This document shows, one piece after another, positions 1,001 through 18,981 of a stretch of 22,880 nucleotides of DNA; positions within the stretch are counted from its first letter, which is position 1, and every line of letters starts with the position of its first letter. A program made the translations under genes and the position numbers. The notes beneath the pieces were generated by a model. That model saw only the letters and a list, made by a program, of their open reading frames with translations. It searched no databases and had not been told where the DNA came from. Source of the stretch: Rhodospirillales bacterium. GTDB taxonomy: Bacteria > Pseudomonadota > Alphaproteobacteria > Rhodospirillales_A > JACZKS01. The stretch lies in NCBI GenBank assembly GCA_018648445.1, contig JABGRG010000059.1, positions 1 to 22,880 of the forward strand, written 5' to 3'.

Positions 1001-2030
1001 GGTGTATGGGTTTTTTGGGGACGTTGCGGATATCGTAGTTCAGAAAGGATATGCCCATCTGAACGCCAACAAGAACCGGCAGCGCGGCCAAAATGACCGT
1101 TCCGGCGGTGGCCGGAATACCGCTTGTGACACTTTCGCGCCATTTGATTGCGCCGAATACGATCCCGAACAAAAACAGCACCTTGCCCGCAACCAGCTGC
1201 AGGGAAACCACCGAGAAATCTCGCACGAAGTATGAGACGAAAATACGCTTGATGGCGTTTACAAAATTCTTGCCCGCAAATTCAAAGATGGCACGGCCGA
1301 TGCGAATGCCGCTTTGTTCGTCGGCGTAGCGCGCCGCCATGGGCAGATCGGCAACAACCGCCCGCATGATGTTTAGCCTGAACAGCATGTCCGTTTCGAA
1401 GAAATAGCCCTTGCTGATTTTCTCGGTCGGAAGACGCGCGGCCACCTTGGCGTGAATGGCTGTAAAACCGTTGGTGGGATCGAAAATGTCCCAATAACCC
1501 GTGGACACCTTGGACAGGAACGACAGACCCAGATTGCCGATAACGCGCACCGCAGGCATTTGTTTGGGGCCGTCCGGGTGCAGGAATCTGTTGCCCTTGA
1601 CGTAATCGGCCTTTCCTTCGGTGATCGGTGCGATCAGGCGGGGAATCAGTGCCGGGTCCATTTGGCCGTCGCCGTCCACCTTGACGATGATGTCGGCGCC
1701 GAGATTCAGGGCGCGGGCGTATCCGCTTAGGGTCGCGCCGCCGACGCCAGTGTTGGTCTTGTGCGTAAGAACTTCAACGCGGGAATCGTCGCAGTTCGCC
1801 CGAACCGTTTTTCCCGTGCGCTCGGGACAGGCATCATCAACGACGATTATGTGACGGACTTCGTCGCCGACGCCAGCGATCACGCCAAGCACGCGTGTCG
1901 ATTCCCGGTAGCAGGGGATGACCACGGCGACACAGGGGGCCGTACTGGGGGCCGTACTGGGGGCCGCACTGTCCTTTTTGCGTTTCGGCACGCCTCGCCC
2001 CCATTTCCGTTTGAATGCCCGCGAAACCAT
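990..2030 (-). CDS. Family 2 glycosyltransferase with C-terminal membrane helices
   Basis: The protein (346 aa from the ATG at 2030) opens with a basic tail, then a GT-A fold: AVVIPCYRES near residue 30, the VVDDACPERT strand, and the DxD-like VKVDGDGQMDP that binds metal and nucleotide sugar. The C-terminal 90 residues hold two hydrophobic segments (around VAGKVLFLFGIVFGAI and TVILAALPVLVGVQMGI), as in dolichol-phosphate-mannose-synthase-like or undecaprenyl-phosphate glycosyltransferases that work at the inner face of the membrane. A TTG 24 bp upstream (2054) is an alternative start; neither start has a good ribosome-binding site. The N-terminal tail contains an S-T-A-P repeat encoded by three 12-bp DNA units. 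It overlaps the convergent GGT stop by 11 bp. The sugar and acceptor cannot be read from sequence. Confidence 0.9.
   Translation of the reverse strand: MVSRAFKRKWGRGVPKRKKDSAAPSTAPSTAPCVAVVIPCYRESTRVLGVIAGVGDEVRHIIVVDDACPERTGKTVRANCDDSRVEVLTHKTNTGVGGATLSGYARALNLGADIIVKVDGDGQMDPALIPRLIAPITEGKADYVKGNRFLHPDGPKQMPAVRVIGNLGLSFLSKVSTGYWDIFDPTNGFTAIHAKVAARLPTEKISKGYFFETDMLFRLNIMRAVVADLPMAARYADEQSGIRIGRAIFEFAGKNFVNAIKRIFVSYFVRDFSVVSLQLVAGKVLFLFGIVFGAIKWRESVTSGIPATAGTVILAALPVLVGVQMGISFLNYDIRNVPKKPIHPIL
1935..1970. repeat. Three tandem 12-bp units inside the glycosyltransferase gene
   Basis: The unit GGGGGCCGTACT occurs at 1935-1946 and 1947-1958 and, with one change (T to C), at 1959-1970. On the minus strand it encodes S-A-A-P, S-T-A-P, S-T-A-P between the basic N-terminal tail and the first beta strand of the catalytic domain. 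The unit is a multiple of three, so copy-number change would keep frame. Confidence 0.9.
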
Positions 2031-2199: not shown

Positions 2200-2931
2200 A
2201 TGGGGGAAATTGTGGCGGAGACGCGGACGGAGGGGACGGAATCAGGCCCCAGGCTGCTGCGCAGTACGGTGCTTCTCAAGGATCTCTCGCGGGAGAACCT
2301 GCGGGAAATCGAAGACGTGTGCCGCTACAAGACCTTCCGGGCGGGCACCCAGATTTTTGATCGTCAGGCCGAAACGCGCGATATCTTCTTCGTGGTTCGC
2401 GGACGCGTGCGAATCGTCAATTATTCGCTGTCGGGACGGGAAATCACGCTGGACGACATTCGCGAGGGGGGGCATTTCGGCGAACTTGCAGCCATTGACG
2501 GCCAGCCCCGCTCGGCCGCGGTGATGGCGGTTGAGGACAGTTTGATTGTGGCGCTGCCGCATCGTTATTTCCTGGATGTCATGAAGAAGCATCCGCCGGT
2601 CGCGGAAAAGGTGATGGGACGACTGGCCCGAATGGTGCGCGCCTCGACCGAACGTATCATGGATCTCAGCACGCTGGCCGCCAACAACCGGGTTCAGGCT
2701 GAAATTCTGCGTCAGGCCCGCGAAACCGAAAGCGCCGACAACACCGCCGTGATTAAACCTATTCCCGTTCATTCCGATATTGCCAGCCGGGTCAGCACGA
2801 CTCGCGAAACGGTCGCCCGGGTGCTGAGCGATCTCTCCAAAAGAAACCTTTTGCAGCGAACCAAGGACGCGCTGGTGGTGACCGACGTCGAAAAACTGGA
2901 AGAAATGGTGGACGAGGTGCGCGGAATCTAA
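2200..2931 (+). CDS. Crp/Fnr-family transcriptional regulator, CRP-like
   Basis: This 243-aa protein has an N-terminal cyclic-nucleotide-binding domain (about residues 25-135), a dimerisation helix (140-165) and a C-terminal winged helix (about 185-235). The phosphate-binding cassette reads GELAAIDGQPRSAAV (G94, E95, R104, S105), keeping the Glu and Arg-Ser that hold cAMP in E. coli CRP. An S-T-E at 149-151 sits where CRP has its C-helix T-S. The recognition helix TTRETVARVL (R202, E203, R207) has the same residues as CRP R180/E181/R185, predicting binding to TGTGA half sites. No N-terminal Cys cluster is present, so it is not an oxygen-sensing FNR. The start is uncertain: the ATG at 2200 lacks a good Shine-Dalgarno, while a GTG at 2212 is preceded by GGGGGA. 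A matching operator lies downstream at 3044-3059. Confidence 0.92.
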   Translation: MGEIVAETRTEGTESGPRLLRSTVLLKDLSRENLREIEDVCRYKTFRAGTQIFDRQAETRDIFFVVRGRVRIVNYSLSGREITLDDIREGGHFGELAAIDGQPRSAAVMAVEDSLIVALPHRYFLDVMKKHPPVAEKVMGRLARMVRASTERIMDLSTLAANNRVQAEILRQARETESADNTAVIKPIPVHSDIASRVSTTRETVARVLSDLSKRNLLQRTKDALVVTDVEKLEEMVDEVRGI

Positions 2932-2969
2932 TTTTTTCTGATTTTTTTTCAATTTTTTTGATTTTTTTT
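2932..2969. other. Helically phased T-tracts (predicted curved DNA)
   Basis: Runs of 6, 8, 7 and 8 T lie at 2932-2937, 2942-2949, 2953-2959 and 2962-2969. Their centres are about 11, 10.5 and 9.5 bp apart, close to one helical turn, so the bends should add up. The stretch begins immediately after the Crp-family stop codon and lies about 75-110 bp before the CRP-like site, in a genome that is otherwise GC-rich. Confidence 0.6.
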
Positions 2970-2999: not shown

Positions 3000-3035
3000 G
3001 CGGGCGCTTTTTTTTGAAGGCGGCCCGTTTTTTTT
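3000..3035 (+). terminator. Rho-independent terminator after the Crp-family gene
   Basis: CGGGC at 3001-3005 pairs with GCCCG at 3023-3027. Inner GC and U-A/G-U pairs extend the stem with one bulged G, and a run of eight T follows at 3028-3035. It lies 70 bp past the regulator's stop codon and would end its transcript before the CRP-like site. Confidence 0.6.
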
Positions 3036-3043
3036 AGGGGGGG

Positions 3044-3059
3044 TGTGATTTGTATCACA
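3044..3059. promoter_or_regulatory. CRP-type operator, perfect TGTGA-N6-TCACA
   Basis: The bases TGTGATTTGTATCACA form an inverted repeat with 6-bp arms (TGTGAT/ATCACA), identical to the E. coli CRP consensus core. It is centred at 3051.5, 112 bp past the stop of a regulator whose recognition helix has the matching R-E-x-x-x-R residues. For a class II promoter the start point would fall near 3093, with a -10 near 3081-3086 (CATCCT, a weak match). The only stretch with promoter-like context it could serve on the plus strand is the non-coding region ending at the terminator at 3248-3273. Confidence 0.75.
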
Positions 3060-3084
3060 TGCAAACGATTCTCGTTAAGGCATC

Positions 3085-3273
3085 CTAACCCTACTGACGA
3101 TCCGACTTAAGGGTTGGATTTGGAAGGCGAAGGAAACCTTCCAGAAGTCAACGGAATTTACGGCGGTGTCGTCTGAGACATTTGAAAGGTTTTCATTCTC
3201 GATATCCCTGTTACCCCCCTATCCGATCTTCCCTCAAGAGCAGACTCTGGCCGCTTCGGCGGCCAATTTTTTT
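3085..3273 (+). ncRNA. Candidate small RNA gene behind the CRP-type site
   Basis: Between the CRP-type operator and a strong plus-strand terminator lie about 190 bp with no convincing reading frame. Three local stem-loops can be drawn: CTAACCCT (3085-3092) with AGGGTTGG (3110-3117); TGGAAGG (3121-3127) with CCTTCCA (3137-3143), whose 9-nt loop shows a GGA motif; and the terminator. The next gene downstream runs on the opposite strand, so a plus-strand terminator here has no protein gene to serve other than by readthrough from the regulator, which already has its own terminator. The 5' end is not fixed: a class II CRP start near 3093 would cut the first stem. It does not resemble tmRNA, SRP RNA or 6S RNA as far as I can judge. 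A leader or 3' UTR fragment is the alternative. Confidence 0.45.
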
Positions 3274-3317
3274 GCCTTTTTTTTGGCAACCGTCTTCGCG
3301 ATGGGCGGTGGAAGCAC
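3234..3317 (-). CDS. Possible 27-aa basic peptide, doubtful
   Basis: A GTG at 3317 has GGAGG five bases upstream on the minus strand and opens 27 codons ending in TGA at 3234. The product starts M-L-P-P-P and continues with IAKTVAKKKAKKLAAEAARV, a strongly basic, alanine-rich helix. It follows the isomerase gene by 28 bp on the same strand and is in the same frame as that gene, so a readthrough of the TAG would append it. The lysines come from the A-rich complement of the T-runs at the terminator, so it may be accidental. No family is recognised. Confidence 0.2.
   Translation of the reverse strand: MLPPPIAKTVAKKKAKKLAAEAARVCS
3248..3273 (+). terminator. Strong rho-independent terminator (plus strand)
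   Basis: TGGCCGC (3248-3254) and GCGGCCA (3259-3265) form a perfect 7-bp stem closed by a stable TTCG tetraloop, followed by A and seven T (3267-3273). There is no U-run on the minus strand side, so it acts on plus-strand transcripts only. It marks the 3' end of the candidate small RNA. Confidence 0.8.
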
Positions 3318-3344: not shown

Positions 3345-3944
3345 CTAGCCCGCCAGCGCCCGGTCAAGAAAGTCCAGCCGGTCCTGGCCCCAGAAGAGTT
3401 CGTCCTTGTAGATGTAGGTCGGGGCGCCAAAGACCTGACGGTCGATGGCCTCCTGGGTGTCGGCGTCGAAGACGGAAACGACGGCTTCCGAGTAGGCGGC
3501 GGCTAAAAGGGCTGCCCCGTCCATTCCGCATTCGCCCGCAATGGTCACCAGCGTGTCGGTATCATCGATATTGCGTTCCTCGGCCCACACGGCGCGAAGG
3601 TACGCGTTGGTCAGCTTGGCGCAATCAAGTCCCTGTTCGCGCGCCGCCGTGACCATGCCGGCGGCGGGCCAGCCCTTGGCCGGGAAGAACTTCGGCTTGA
3701 TGTTTAGCGCAATGCCGAGAAGGTCGCGCCAGCGTTTCAGTTCCGCCAGCCGATAGGCCTGACGCTGCAGCGGGCGCTTGGGCAGGGGCAGGCCGCCCGA
3801 AATGGGAAAAATCTTTCCGCCCAGATCAACGGGTTTGTAGGTGATGGTTGCACCGTGGCGCTCGGCGATTTCGATCAGGCGCCCGCCGCCCATATAGGTC
3901 CAGGGCGAGGTGATGGAGAAATAGTAATCGATCACTTTGCTCAT
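3345..3944 (-). CDS. 2-hydroxychromene-2-carboxylate isomerase family (DsbA fold, kappa-GST like)
   Basis: The 199-aa product has the N-terminal thioredoxin-fold strand DYYFSITSPWTYMG, in which the Ser-Pro-W/Y pattern replaces the Cys-x-x-Cys of DsbA and supplies the catalytic Ser of HCCA isomerases. A helical insert follows, then the VFGAPTYIYKDELFWGQDRL segment with the cis-Pro typical of the fold. Known members use glutathione in naphthalene-type aromatic breakdown, but many genomic members have unknown substrates. No other aromatic-degradation gene is nearby. It lies 9 bp behind the aminotransferase gene; its Shine-Dalgarno GGAG overlaps that gene's TAG stop, so the two are surely cotranscribed. 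Length is normal for the family. Confidence 0.88.
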   Translation of the reverse strand: MSKVIDYYFSITSPWTYMGGGRLIEIAERHGATITYKPVDLGGKIFPISGGLPLPKRPLQRQAYRLAELKRWRDLLGIALNIKPKFFPAKGWPAAGMVTAAREQGLDCAKLTNAYLRAVWAEERNIDDTDTLVTIAGECGMDGAALLAAAYSEAVVSVFDADTQEAIDRQVFGAPTYIYKDELFWGQDRLDFLDRALAG

Positions 3945-14720: not shown

Positions 14721-17700
14721 TTAAGCGTTCAGAATTTCTGCGAGCAAGGGACGCGCGGTCATCAACTGGGCCGATTTGGCCTCCTCGTCAAGACGTGCGA
14801 TTTCGGCAACGCTCGCTTCGCCACGCTCGCCGCGACCGTAGGCGGCAAGAGCGCGACCCCGGGTGATAAAGTAGTCGGTCCAGGGCAGAGGTTCGGTCCG
14901 CGTGAATTCCTCCAACGCCGTGGCATATTGTTCCATGCGCTGCCAATCCCCGATGCGATAACAAATATCCATGACGACCCGGTGGTACCAGAACTGGCAG
15001 TGGCTGACGGCTCCCTGGCTAAGAATTTCCCCACCTTCCGTCAGATACTTTTCGCGCGTCGCGGGGTCTTCGGCCTCGGCGGCCATTTCCGCAAGAACCC
15101 ACGGCCCCATGAAACTGACCTTTGTTTCCCGGCAAGCCCGCATGGCTTCGGCAAAATGTTCGCGGGCCTCATCAAGGTTTCCTTCAACGCGGCATATCTT
15201 TCCAAGATACAGAAGGTTCTCGCCCTCGAACCGCTGCGCGCCAATTCTCTGGGCCAGTTCCCGAGCCCGGTTCACATGCTCGCGCGCCTGTCCCGGATCG
15301 CCCATTTCGAAGAAGGTGTTGTATAGGATTCCCTCGCCCAGCAACTCGGCGCGGAAATGATCGACCTTGCGAGCCGCGGCAACCGCCTGCAATCCGAATT
15401 CAAGCGCCTTCGGAAGATCGTTTGCGTATTGGCTGGTGTAACCCACCATGGAAAGATTGGCGGCCTCGATCCTTCCGAACCCGTGCTTCTGACAAAGCGT
15501 TACGCATTGGCGGAAGTATTCGTTGGCGGTTTTCATGTGGCCGCGCGCATAGGCGGCATCCGCCATTCCACCCAACGCACGGGCTTCGGCCTCGGCCGAA
15601 GCGGCCTTGCGGGCATACTTCAGGGCCAACCCGTGAGCTTCGCTGCATTGTTCGATTTTGCCCAACGGGAAACTGAGGTTGCCGCGCAAATGATAAATGC
15701 GCGACAGGTCCTCGGGCAGGTCCAGTTCCTTGGCCACGGCCTCGGCCCGGTCCAGCGCCACGAAGGCCTCGTCAAGGCGTTCCACCACCCGCATCGCGGT
15801 GGCCATGGCGAAATTGAAGGAAAGATCCCATCTCGCTCGCTCTTCCCCGGCGGGCATGGCGCGAAGCGCTTCCGCGCCCTTCGACAAGTGCGCAATCGCC
15901 TCTTGATTGGCAAAACGTTCAATGGCAAGCGTGCCGGCATTGTTCCAGTATTCAAGGGCGCGCAGCGTGTACCCGCCCTTGGAGAAATGATGGGCCAGCA
16001 ATTCCGGCTGATTCTCGACCATCCGGGGAAAGCGGATTTCCATGGCCGACGCGATCTGCGCGTGGAACTCCGCGCTCCGGCTTTTCAAAAGCGATTGATA
16101 GGCGGCGTCGCGCACCAGCGCATGTTTGAATTCGTAAATCGCGTCCGGTCCCGCGCCCCGGCGGTAAATAAGGCCCGCCTCCAGCAACTGGCCGAGACCG
16201 TCTTCCAGACGGCTTTCGGAAAACGGCGATACCGCGAAAACAAACTCGTGGGAGAAGGTCCGGCCCAGGGTCGCCGCAAATTGTGCGATTTCCTTGACCG
16301 GAGCCAGATGGTCGAGGCGCGCCATCAGCGAATCCTGCAACGACGCCGGAATCGCCACCGATGCCAGCGGACCCTTCAGGACGTAGCGGTCCGGCGTTTC
16401 TTCCAGCAGGTTCGATTCGAGCACCGTCTTGGTCAGTTCCTCGACGAAAAGCGGGACCCCGTCGGTTTTGACCACGATGTCTTCCAGCACGGCATCGGGC
16501 AGGGGCTTGTCGCCGGTCAGTTCACCGATGATGCGCAGGCTTTCCTTGCGCCCCAGACGGTTGAGGCTCAGTTCGGTCAGGTGACTGTGACGCCCCCAGG
16601 GAGATACGAACTCGGGCCGGAATGTCAGCACCAGCATCACCCTGGACGATCCGATGCGTTCAATCACATGGCCGACGAATTCCAGCGTCGAGGGGTCCAT
16701 CCAGTGCAGATCCTCGACGATCAGCAACATCGGCTGATCGGCGGCGCGGGCCTCGGTGCGGGCGACCAAGGTGTCGAGCACAGCCCTTTTCAATTGCTCG
16801 GCATTCAGACCCAGGGGTTTGTAGCGATTGCCCATGGGGATGGTCAGCAAGGCCGCCAGAACCGGAGCGTGTTCTTCGACCGGCAGGCCAAGCAGGCGCA
16901 AATCAGCGTCAATCTTTTCCAGTTTGGTTTCGTCGGTGTCATCGCGCTCGAAACCGAAACGGCTGCGAAGCTGTTGAATTATCGGATGGAAAGCGCTGTT
17001 CTTGTAAAAGGGCGAGCAAAAACACAAAACGCGATGGTGGGGTTCGGTTTCCAGGCGGTCGCGCAAATCCTTGGTAATCCGCGACTTGCCCAGCCCCGGT
17101 TCCGCCGAAAGCAAAACGACCTGCCCTTCCCCTTCCTTGGCCTGCTCCCAGCGACCGAGCATAAGCCCGATTTCCTCGCCCCGGCCGACCAGCGGCGTAA
17201 GGCGACTTTGGGCGGCAGCCTCGAACCGGTTTTGCGCCTCGGTCGCTTCGCGCAACCGATAAGCCGTGACCGGTGCCGCCACGCCCTTGAGCCTTTGCGG
17301 CCCCAAATCGTCAAACACGAACAGACCCTCGGCGAGACGGCGGGTTGCCTCGCCGACGACGACCGTTCCGGGCTCCGCCAACGCCTGGAAGCGGGCCGCC
17401 AGATTGGGCGTTTCGCCGAGGACGGCGTGTTCCTCGGACGCTCCTTCGCCGATGATATCACCGGCCACCACCAGGCCGGTCGCGATACCGATGCGAACCC
17501 GAAGAATCTCATCGCCCCCGACGTTTAGCGCGGTAATTTCTTCCAAAATGTGAAGTCCGGTGCGTATGGCGCGTTCGGCGTCATTCTCGCTGGCGCTGGG
17601 ATACCCGAAATAGACCAAAAGGCCGTCACCCATAAAGCGCGCGACATATCCCGAAAAACGCTCGACGACTTCGGTGCAGACATTTTGAAACGCCGTGATG

Positions 17701-18002
17701 TGGTCGCGCAGCTCCTCGGGGTCCACGCGTTCGGCCAGCGCCGTCGAACCTGCCAGATCGCAGAACATGACCGTCAGTTGGCGCCGTTCGGCACCCGATT
17801 TTTCGGATTTGGATGTTTTCGAAGGGGTGGGCGCCGGTGCGGGGGATGCCCCATTCAGTCGCTCGCCGCATCCTCCGCAGAACTTGTCGTCCGGATCGTT
17901 GGCGAAATCACATTGCGGGCAAATCACGTCGAGCGGTGCGCCGCACTCCGAACAAAATTTCCGTCCATCACGGTTTTCGCAAAGACATCCGGTGCAACGC
18001 AT
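14721..18002 (-). CDS. Zinc-ribbon / class III nucleotidyl cyclase / AAA ATPase / TPR protein
   Basis: The 1093-aa product begins with a double zinc ribbon (Cys 3, 6, 17, 20 and 28, 31, 42, 45), then a Pro-rich linker and a class III cyclase domain (about 73-250). Its two metal Asp are visible (VMFCDLAGS, D82; RFMGDGLLV, D126) as are the transition-state Asn and Arg (N200 and R204 in TPNLAARFQAL), so catalysis is plausible; ATP versus GTP preference is not clear. A large AAA/LuxR-type ATPase follows, with Walker A AEPGLGKS (K306) and Walker B LLIVEDLHWMD, then about 500 residues of TPR-like helices. No membrane helix: a cytosolic sensor. The start at 18002 is fixed by GGGGAGG upstream and by the first Cys; an upstream ATG-like extension to 18050 is not needed. 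It ends 15 bp from the kinase stop, tail to tail. Confidence 0.94.
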   Translation of the reverse strand: MRCTGCLCENRDGRKFCSECGAPLDVICPQCDFANDPDDKFCGGCGERLNGASPAPAPTPSKTSKSEKSGAERRQLTVMFCDLAGSTALAERVDPEELRDHITAFQNVCTEVVERFSGYVARFMGDGLLVYFGYPSASENDAERAIRTGLHILEEITALNVGGDEILRVRIGIATGLVVAGDIIGEGASEEHAVLGETPNLAARFQALAEPGTVVVGEATRRLAEGLFVFDDLGPQRLKGVAAPVTAYRLREATEAQNRFEAAAQSRLTPLVGRGEEIGLMLGRWEQAKEGEGQVVLLSAEPGLGKSRITKDLRDRLETEPHHRVLCFCSPFYKNSAFHPIIQQLRSRFGFERDDTDETKLEKIDADLRLLGLPVEEHAPVLAALLTIPMGNRYKPLGLNAEQLKRAVLDTLVARTEARAADQPMLLIVEDLHWMDPSTLEFVGHVIERIGSSRVMLVLTFRPEFVSPWGRHSHLTELSLNRLGRKESLRIIGELTGDKPLPDAVLEDIVVKTDGVPLFVEELTKTVLESNLLEETPDRYVLKGPLASVAIPASLQDSLMARLDHLAPVKEIAQFAATLGRTFSHEFVFAVSPFSESRLEDGLGQLLEAGLIYRRGAGPDAIYEFKHALVRDAAYQSLLKSRSAEFHAQIASAMEIRFPRMVENQPELLAHHFSKGGYTLRALEYWNNAGTLAIERFANQEAIAHLSKGAEALRAMPAGEERARWDLSFNFAMATAMRVVERLDEAFVALDRAEAVAKELDLPEDLSRIYHLRGNLSFPLGKIEQCSEAHGLALKYARKAASAEAEARALGGMADAAYARGHMKTANEYFRQCVTLCQKHGFGRIEAANLSMVGYTSQYANDLPKALEFGLQAVAAARKVDHFRAELLGEGILYNTFFEMGDPGQAREHVNRARELAQRIGAQRFEGENLLYLGKICRVEGNLDEAREHFAEAMRACRETKVSFMGPWVLAEMAAEAEDPATREKYLTEGGEILSQGAVSHCQFWYHRVVMDICYRIGDWQRMEQYATALEEFTRTEPLPWTDYFITRGRALAAYGRGERGEASVAEIARLDEEAKSAQLMTARPLLAEILNA

Positions 18003-18071
18003 GCGGCCTCCCCTGCCTGTGCCAGTTAAGCAGCCTGCGCGAAAAATCAACCATCGGCGCGCCTTGTCGGT

Positions 18072-18922: not shown

Positions 18923-18929
18923 GGGGCAC

Positions 18930-18959
18930 AAAAAAAGGGCCGGGTGCAATGCCCGGCCC
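18930..18959 (-). terminator. Rho-independent terminator of ilvE
   Basis: On the minus strand GGGCCGGG (18959-18952) pairs with CCCGGCCC (18944-18937) over 8 bp around a short loop, followed by seven U (18936-18930). It lies 23 bp past the ilvE stop. There is no T-run on the plus side, so it does not end the LOG transcript in the usual way. Confidence 0.85.
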
Positions 18960-18981
18960 CATTTCGTTTCGGCGCGAAACC

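What the first reader, a model, noticed from the sequence alone, without database searches (positions are those of the whole stretch)
3036..3275. Candidate CRP-controlled small RNA gene
Between a terminator that closes the regulator gene (3000-3035) and a second, stronger plus-strand terminator (3248-3273) lie a CRP-type site and about 190 bp with local stem-loops and no credible protein frame. The next gene is on the other strand, so a second terminator here needs a transcript to end. The hairpin at 3121-3143 exposes a GGA motif in its loop (CsrA-like or ribosome-mimic possibility). A Crp gene with a CRP-driven sRNA next door would be a compact regulatory module that I do not know as described.
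Basis: partly seen in the sequence, partly recalled or inferred. Interest (0 to 1): 0.75.

Follow-up and report, generated by a model that had tools for sequence, protein, structure and literature searches.

The report
CRP-switched small RNA beside crp
A short stretch after a global-regulator gene carries a well-conserved promoter for that type of regulator and makes, in all likelihood, an undescribed small regulatory RNA shared by many relatives of this bacterium.

Summary
Window 3044-3059 is a perfect CRP palindrome, the only perfect one in the window. A -10-like hexamer (3081-3086) lies exactly 32 nt from its centre, the class II spacing. A 14-nt block, TTCCCTCAAGAGCA (3229-3242), and a terminator (to 3273) follow; the predicted RNA is about 3093-3273. 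A profile of block plus terminator matches 123 of 317 genomes of the nearest relative's order, some only in the terminator. Of 73 distinct copies inspected, 72 have a CRP site with at most 2 mismatches upstream (54 perfect), against 5.9% of control stretches, and 63 of 72 have the -10 A and T at the class II distance. Neither feature was used to find the copies. Nineteen copies directly follow a crp homologue. No Rfam family matches at threshold. The nearest lead, alpha-r8/mmgR, scores far below cut-off and occurs separately, above cut-off, in 15 of 28 genomes searched. I conclude: a new CRP-activated sRNA family, probably pairing with ribosome-binding sites through its C/U-rich core. Expression and targets are unproven; target tests were negative. 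The CsrA idea fails: no CsrA in 5 of 5 carriers searched.

The parts
2200..2931 (+). crp-type regulator gene (cNMP-binding domain plus Crp-like helix-turn-helix). Start may be GTG 2212 as in relatives. RETVxR recognition-helix motif present
   Evidence: Pfam PF00027 and PF13545 over cut-off; alignment of 27 sequences; linking the RETVxR motif to TGTGA reading is recalled knowledge of E. coli CRP
3000..3035 (+). intrinsic terminator of the regulator gene; its T-run (3028-3035) also lies where an A/T-rich tract is enriched upstream of the CRP site in relatives
   Evidence: fold -17.1 kcal/mol, z -3.2, also present in L001; A/T 0.81 vs 0.42 background at that position
3044..3059 (+). CRP site TGTGATTTGTATCACA, centre 3051.5
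   Evidence: 0 mismatches, the only perfect one in the window; a site with at most 2 mismatches upstream of 72 of 73 copies of the element
3081..3086 (+). -10-like hexamer CATCCT, 32 nt from CRP centre (class II spacing)
   Evidence: A2/T6 at this offset in 63 of 72 copies; at the other offsets where it occurs at all the mean is 3.6 and the maximum 16 of 72
3093..3273 (+). predicted small RNA, about 181 nt (start inferred from class II spacing, end from terminator)
   Evidence: inferred; no transcript data available
3121..3143 (+). local hairpin with loop CGAAGGAAA in the lineage-specific 5' part
   Evidence: shared with L001
3229..3242 (+). conserved core TTCCCTCAAGAGCA with C/U-rich stretch (proposed seed)
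   Evidence: mean unpaired probability of UCCCUC 0.76-0.90 over 72 copies, but in the window copy the first four letters are mostly paired (unpaired 0.22-0.43) and the next four open (0.73-0.89)
3248..3273 (+). intrinsic terminator of the small RNA (stem 3248-3265, T 3267-3273)
   Evidence: stem pairs covary across 52 copies

Best explanation
The stretch is the gene of a trans-acting small RNA that CRP switches on. The product of the crp-type gene next door (or another CRP of the cell), bound to a cyclic nucleotide, sits at 3044-3059 centred at -41.5 of a class II promoter, and RNA polymerase starts near 3093. The RNA ends at the terminator at about 3273. Its conserved block near the 3' end is C/U-rich and, in the average copy, mostly unpaired at UCCCUC. 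This resembles an anti-Shine-Dalgarno sequence and would pair with G/A-rich ribosome-binding sites and lower their translation, probably with Hfq. The element is one member of an undescribed sRNA family of this alphaproteobacterial order, typically an RNA of about 80-90 nt; the window's copy has a longer 5' part. Shown here: conserved sequence, CRP site, promoter spacing, terminator, linkage to crp in part of the family. Inferred: transcription, activation by this CRP, base pairing, Hfq, targets.
For: L001 (crp protein 90% identical) keeps the spacer at 85% over 243 nt, best in promoter (44/49) and 3' block (70/77) against 87/111 between. A profile of the 3' block (R1) matches 123 of 317 genomes of the order. 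In 289 genomes drawn from the class 13 match, and only 3 of these with the core: G001, one more genome of the order, and one site (L171) without CRP site directly behind the end of a reading frame. Of 73 distinct copies, 54 have a perfect CRP site within 300 nt upstream and 72 at most 2 mismatches; control stretches 0.4% and 5.9% (n 1129). -10 A2/T6 at exactly 32 nt in 63 of 72. A model built from 52 short copies, without the window, L001-L003 or L084, finds the window copy at 38.1 bits, E 2.7e-11. Tandem copies each have their own CRP-like site. Short copies fold better than shuffles (mean z -4.3, n 53); terminator pairs covary. The window holds a gene with a cyclase domain (PF00211). Hfq in 3 of 5 carriers searched.
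Against: No expression data. Hfq was not found in G001, the nearest relative, nor in G014. No target emerged: the core complement before ATG gave 21 sites in 28 genomes, 3 of them the sRNA gene itself; two control patterns gave 6 and 26, the pattern read backwards 4. In the window the crp start paired best of 18 tried gene starts with the longer seed stretch (-31.6 kcal/mol; 1% of random stretches reach -29.5), but with the core alone it lies at 7% of background, and over the 17 of 19 loci that gave a value crp is not consistent. The window's own RNA is not unusually stable, and part of its core is paired in the predicted ensemble. L171 shows that the core can occur without the promoter.
Confidence: 0.77

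Rival explanations
1. The CRP-driven transcript is first of all a small mRNA, or a dual-function RNA: a short peptide is encoded between promoter and core and the conserved 3' block acts as its 3' UTR.
For: L002 and L084 have an ATG frame of 32 aa with an upstream AAGG(G/A)GAG between CRP site and core, L004 a 32-aa frame sharing KAFAVAVSL with L002, L003 a 45-aa frame behind GGAGGG. The window has a 20-codon TTG frame, and by eye L001 keeps a frame open there.
Against: 52 of 72 copies have only 23-39 nt between predicted start and core, no room for a gene. The frame of L003 is unrelated to that of L002/L084/L004. The window frame has only a TTG start and differs from L001 in sequence and end.
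Confidence: 0.13
2. It is a divergent member of the alpha-r8 (mmgR/suhB, RF00519) sRNA family.
For: Sub-threshold RF00519 matches at the right place and strand: window 15.6 bits, L056 27.2, L003 23.9; same plan of C/U-rich seed followed by a terminator. Genuine alpha-r8 loci score weakly on R2 (up to 24.3 bits).
Against: Gathering score is 41, and another family (Ysr49, 28.0 bits) scores as well at L056. The alpha-r8 core UUUCCUCCCU (section 7 of PMC12559287) is absent. 15 of 28 genomes searched have an above-threshold alpha-r8 at another place; the 14 loci displayed have GTTTCCTCCC and no CRP-like site with fewer than 2 mismatches. R2 separates the two: 34.7-57.4 bits against 15.3-24.3.
Confidence: 0.08
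3. There is no separate RNA: the second terminator only catches read-through of the regulator gene.
For: The element follows a crp homologue on the same strand in 19 of 73 copies.
Against: The other 54 copies have no crp homologue in the fetched stretch, yet CRP site, -10 and core are kept across the set; in window and L001 crp has its own terminator before the CRP site.
Confidence: 0.02

Closest known systems
CyaR (RyeE), CRP-activated sRNA of enterobacteria (titles seen in reference lists of PMC8294330 and PMC3927594; details recalled)
   Same: CRP-activated (titles), short, intrinsic terminator, seed resembling an anti-Shine-Dalgarno sequence (recalled)
   Different: No match to such a family in the Rfam searches; different bacterial class; part of the present family sits directly behind crp; targets unknown
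alpha-r8 family: mmgR of Sinorhizobium, SisA-D of Caulobacter (RF00519; of PMC12559287 I read abstract, passages and section 7)
   Same: Alphaproteobacterial, C/U-rich single-stranded 3' seed before an intrinsic terminator; several copies in one genome occur
   Different: Core UUUCCUCCCU versus UUCCCUCAAGAGCA; usually next to an N-formylglutamate amidohydrolase gene; no common upstream motif among the Caulobacter copies, here a class II CRP promoter in nearly all copies inspected; below RF00519 cut-off
Spot 42 (recalled)
   Same: sRNA of the cAMP-CRP network
   Different: Spot 42 is repressed, not activated, by CRP (recalled); no match to it in the Rfam searches

Membership tests
alpha-r8 / mmgR / suhB (RF00519) | score at or above the Rfam gathering score (41 bits) | tested here: not met
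   window 15.6 bits; best other copy of the element seen 33.6 bits (G151)
alpha-r8 / mmgR / suhB (RF00519) | 10-nt core UUUCCUCCCU | tested here: not met
   core is UUCCCUCAAGAGCA, nearly invariant in 73 copies (copies were found through this core)
alpha-r8 / mmgR / suhB (RF00519) | intrinsic terminator directly after the core | tested here: met
alpha-r8 / mmgR / suhB (RF00519) | next to an N-formylglutamate amidohydrolase gene (usual, per PMC12559287) | tested here: not met
   window neighbours are crp-type and DsbA-like genes
CRP-activated sRNA (functional class, as CyaR) | CRP site and promoter at activating spacing | tested here: met
CRP-activated sRNA (functional class, as CyaR) | expression depends on CRP and cAMP | not testable with these tools
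   no expression data
CRP-activated sRNA (functional class, as CyaR) | base pairing with target mRNAs | tested here: inconclusive
   seed accessible in the average copy, less so in the window; pattern test shows no excess of sites over controls
CyaR sequence family | match to an Rfam CyaR/RyeE model | tested here: not met
   0 gathering matches in the window and none to such a family among the matches listed in permissive scans
CsrB-type sponge RNA | CsrA protein in the host and repeated GGA hairpins | tested here: not met
   PF02599 in 0 of 5 carrier genomes, found in 3 of 14 control genomes; window's own genome not held; one GGA loop noted, repeats not searched systematically

The most novel reading that the evidence does not exclude
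An undescribed, order-wide sRNA family is the RNA arm of cyclic-nucleotide/CRP control in these alphaproteobacteria. In part of the order it is locked behind crp as a ready-made feed-forward module, and it arose independently of CyaR and Spot 42.
Probability: 0.55. Interest if true: 0.68.

Novelty: new member of a known kind. Interest (0 to 1): 0.58.

Why it matters
CRP-activated small RNAs are known from enterobacteria. In the ten paper searches made here I found none described for this alphaproteobacterial group. A conserved RNA with a textbook class II CRP promoter, often beside crp, gives a concrete entry to how these bacteria (among the carriers are MAGs and the magnetotactic isolate Magnetovibrio blakemorei MV-1) turn a cyclic-nucleotide signal into post-transcriptional control. 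It can be tested at once in that cultured carrier.

Tried and rejected
Rejected: CsrA sponge (no CsrA in 5 of 5 carriers). Unsupported: crp mRNA as a conserved target. In the window the crp start ranked first of 18 gene starts with a 47-nt seed stretch (several of the 18 starts were my guesses and do not begin with a start codon), but with the core alone 17 of 19 loci gave a value and the share of background stretches pairing as well ranged from 0.02 to 0.71 (start codons uncertain). Target search with the core complement before ATG: 21 sites in 28 genomes (3 are the sRNA gene read backwards), no family recurring among the frames read by eye; controls 6 and 26, reversed pattern 4: no enrichment. 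Known Rfam RNA: no gathering match in the window. Plasmid collection: no match. Secondary structure of the whole RNA as a conserved fold: RNAalifold gave only 5 terminator pairs, and none on the first alignment. Neighbours of copies not beside crp: 20 ORFs from 10 loci scanned, 8 with a Pfam match, no shared family. Paper searches (10 of 10 used) gave no description of this RNA; open-licence papers only, results seen as listings apart from four papers (PMC12559287: abstract, passages, section 7; PMC9549626, PMC8294330, PMC3927594: passages). The 73 copies come from the loci held (69 loci), not from all matches: of the matches I had the 30 loci returned and 40 regions fetched, besides loci. Copies with more than one substitution or an insertion in the core (for example L136, L137, L150, L169) are outside the 73; L137 is a doubtful member. 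Of the 28 genomes, one (G495, L171) is probably not a carrier.

Full report
WHAT IS THERE. The window belongs to a Rhodospirillales-type alphaproteobacterium. The nearest genome found by its crp protein is a Rhodospirillales MAG (isolate BS150m-G3), L001, 90% identity; where sources name the best protein matches, most read Rhodospirillales. The regulator gene 2200-2931 is a cNMP-binding/Crp-HTH protein. It is followed by its own terminator, a perfect CRP palindrome at 3044-3059, and about 190 bp closed by a second terminator. The next gene, a DsbA-like protein (3345-3944), is on the other strand. No Rfam family reaches its gathering score.

CONSERVATION. L001 keeps the spacer at 85%. More distant relatives keep only the end: CGATCTTCCCTCAAGAGCAGACT plus terminator in L002 and L003, and TTCCCTCAAGAGCA plus terminator in others. 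A DNA search with 3195-3275 matched 18 of 297 genomes of the order, a few in the terminator only. A profile of 15 sequences (A2, R1; sequence only) matched 123 of 317 genomes of the order at E up to 0.001. Some of the weaker matches cover only the terminator, so the number of true carriers is lower. In 289 genomes drawn from the class 13 match: ten only in the terminator part, two are G001 and another genome also found in the order search, and one, L171, has the core without a CRP site directly behind the end of a reading frame. The family thus appears confined to this order at the sensitivity used; the rest of the class was only sampled. Of 40 genomes behind named loci, 32 match. For G097, G106 and G113 among them I saw no clear core. 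Carriers with a core and CRP site include Magnetovibrio blakemorei MV-1 (L242) and Defluviicoccus sp. SSA4 (L145).

INDEPENDENT PROMOTER EVIDENCE. I collected 73 distinct copies with at most one substitution in the core and a T-run after it. The search used the core, so its invariance is partly selection; the upstream region was not used. Within 300 nt upstream, 54 of 73 have a perfect CRP palindrome, 10 have one mismatch, 8 two and 1 three. In 1129 control stretches of the same loci the shares are 0.4%, 0.6% and 4.9% for 0, 1 and 2 mismatches. In 52 of 72 the site starts 72-88 nt before the core; the window's lies 185 nt before it because of a longer 5' part. Anchored on the CRP centre, A at the second and T at the sixth place of a hexamer 32 nt away occur in 63 of 72 copies; at the other offsets where the pair occurs at all the mean is 3.6 and the maximum 16 (profile). 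This is the geometry of a class II CRP promoter (recalled: CRP at -41.5, -10 at -12 to -7). The window's hexamer is CATCCT, 3081-3086. A/T-rich letters are enriched at 18-23 nt before the CRP centre (0.81 vs 0.42). In the window this place is the T-run of the crp terminator.

THE RNA. With the class II start the window RNA runs from about 3093 to 3273. Over 72 copies the predicted lengths range from 50 to 257 nt, median 84 (a few ends were cut short by the T-run rule). Short copies fold better than dinucleotide shuffles (mean z -4.3, n 53, 20 shuffles each), also in the part before the core (mean z -2.5; 34 of 52 at p 0.05 or below; long copies 12 of 19), though 5' sequences differ between lineages. 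The window's own 5' part shows no such excess (z -0.1). UCCCUC of the core is unpaired with mean probability 0.76-0.90 over the copies; in the window the first four core letters are mostly paired. Terminator pairs covary (19, 6 and 3 sequences with both sides changed at three of five pairs). A model of 52 short copies, made without the window, L001-L003 or L084, recovers the window at 38.1 bits.

GENOMIC SETTING. In 19 of 73 copies a crp homologue (53-100% identity) lies directly upstream on the same strand, its end about 100-336 nt before the core. The neighbours looked at for ten other copies vary. Seven genomes inspected have two matches in tandem, each with its own CRP-like site (L131-L137; L137's cores are degenerate). 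L002, L084 and L003 have a short frame between promoter and core; L004 has a CRP site, a similar 32-aa frame and only the first part of the core.

FUNCTION. UUCCCUC resembles an anti-Shine-Dalgarno sequence, so repression of translation by pairing at ribosome-binding sites is the simplest reading. This is inference. My tests for targets were negative or inconclusive. Hfq was found in 3 of 5 carriers, not in G001 and G014. CsrA was found in none of 5. A gene with an adenylate/guanylate cyclase domain lies at 14721-18050. Among solved proteins the crp protein matches CRP/FNR regulators and other cyclic-nucleotide-binding proteins.

COMPARISON. The one recurring Rfam lead is alpha-r8 (RF00519): window 15.6 bits, best element 33.6, cut-off 41. 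Above-threshold alpha-r8 genes sit elsewhere in 15 of 28 genomes searched. The 14 loci displayed have GTTTCCTCCC and no clean CRP site, and the two groups separate on R2 (34.7-57.4 vs 15.3-24.3 bits). Of PMC12559287 I read the abstract, found passages and section 7. It states that alpha-r8 has the core UUUCCUCCCU, lies mostly next to an FGase gene and shows no common upstream motif among the Caulobacter copies. So this is not alpha-r8 by the tests made, although a distant sibling relation is possible. In mode of control it is closest to CyaR (titles seen, details recalled).

VERDICT. A real, conserved, CRP-controlled small RNA gene of an undescribed family; known in kind, new in identity. Ten paper searches found no description of it. 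From the transcriptome paper on Magnetospirillum gryphiswaldense (PMC9549626) I saw only passages; they name one Rfam sRNA, BjrC80.

Noticed in passing
L002:2191-2289; L084 (minus strand); L004:3323-3421; L003:3367-3504: Short frames between the CRP site and the conserved 3' block: 32 aa hydrophobic in L002 and L084, related 32 aa in L004 (KAFAVAVSL shared with L002), unrelated 45 aa in L003. Possible CRP-controlled small proteins or dual-function RNAs.
   Followed up: partly
L131, L132, L133, L134, L135, L136, L137: Two matches to the element in tandem, about 140-205 nt apart, each with its own CRP-like site.
   Followed up: partly
window 14721-18050: Large protein with zinc ribbon, adenylate/guanylate cyclase domain, AAA ATPase and TPR repeats; a possible source of the cyclic nucleotide for the crp-type regulator in the same window.
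   Followed up: partly
window 2932-2969: Four long T-runs in a row directly after the regulator's stop codon, before its terminator hairpin; L001 is also A/T-rich there. Unexplained.
   Followed up: no
window 18926-18967: GGCCGGG...CCCGGCC hairpin matched on both strands by R2 in its terminator part only, a probable two-way terminator between convergent genes.
   Followed up: partly
window 1935-1970: Three 12-nt direct repeats (GGGGGCCGTACT twice, GGGGGCCGCACT once) near the start of the glycosyltransferase gene, giving repeated residues of the type STAP.
   Followed up: no
L195, L197, L198: Genuine alpha-r8 genes in some carriers have a TGTGC-N6-GCACA palindrome about 50-65 nt upstream of the core, which may be a different regulator's site.
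   Followed up: no
L150, L169, L170: Weaker matches with an altered core start (TCCCTCAAGA(C/G)CA) and a CRP-like site only 49-54 nt upstream; G024 and G045 carry several weak matches of this kind in the listing. A possible sub-family with another geometry.
   Followed up: no
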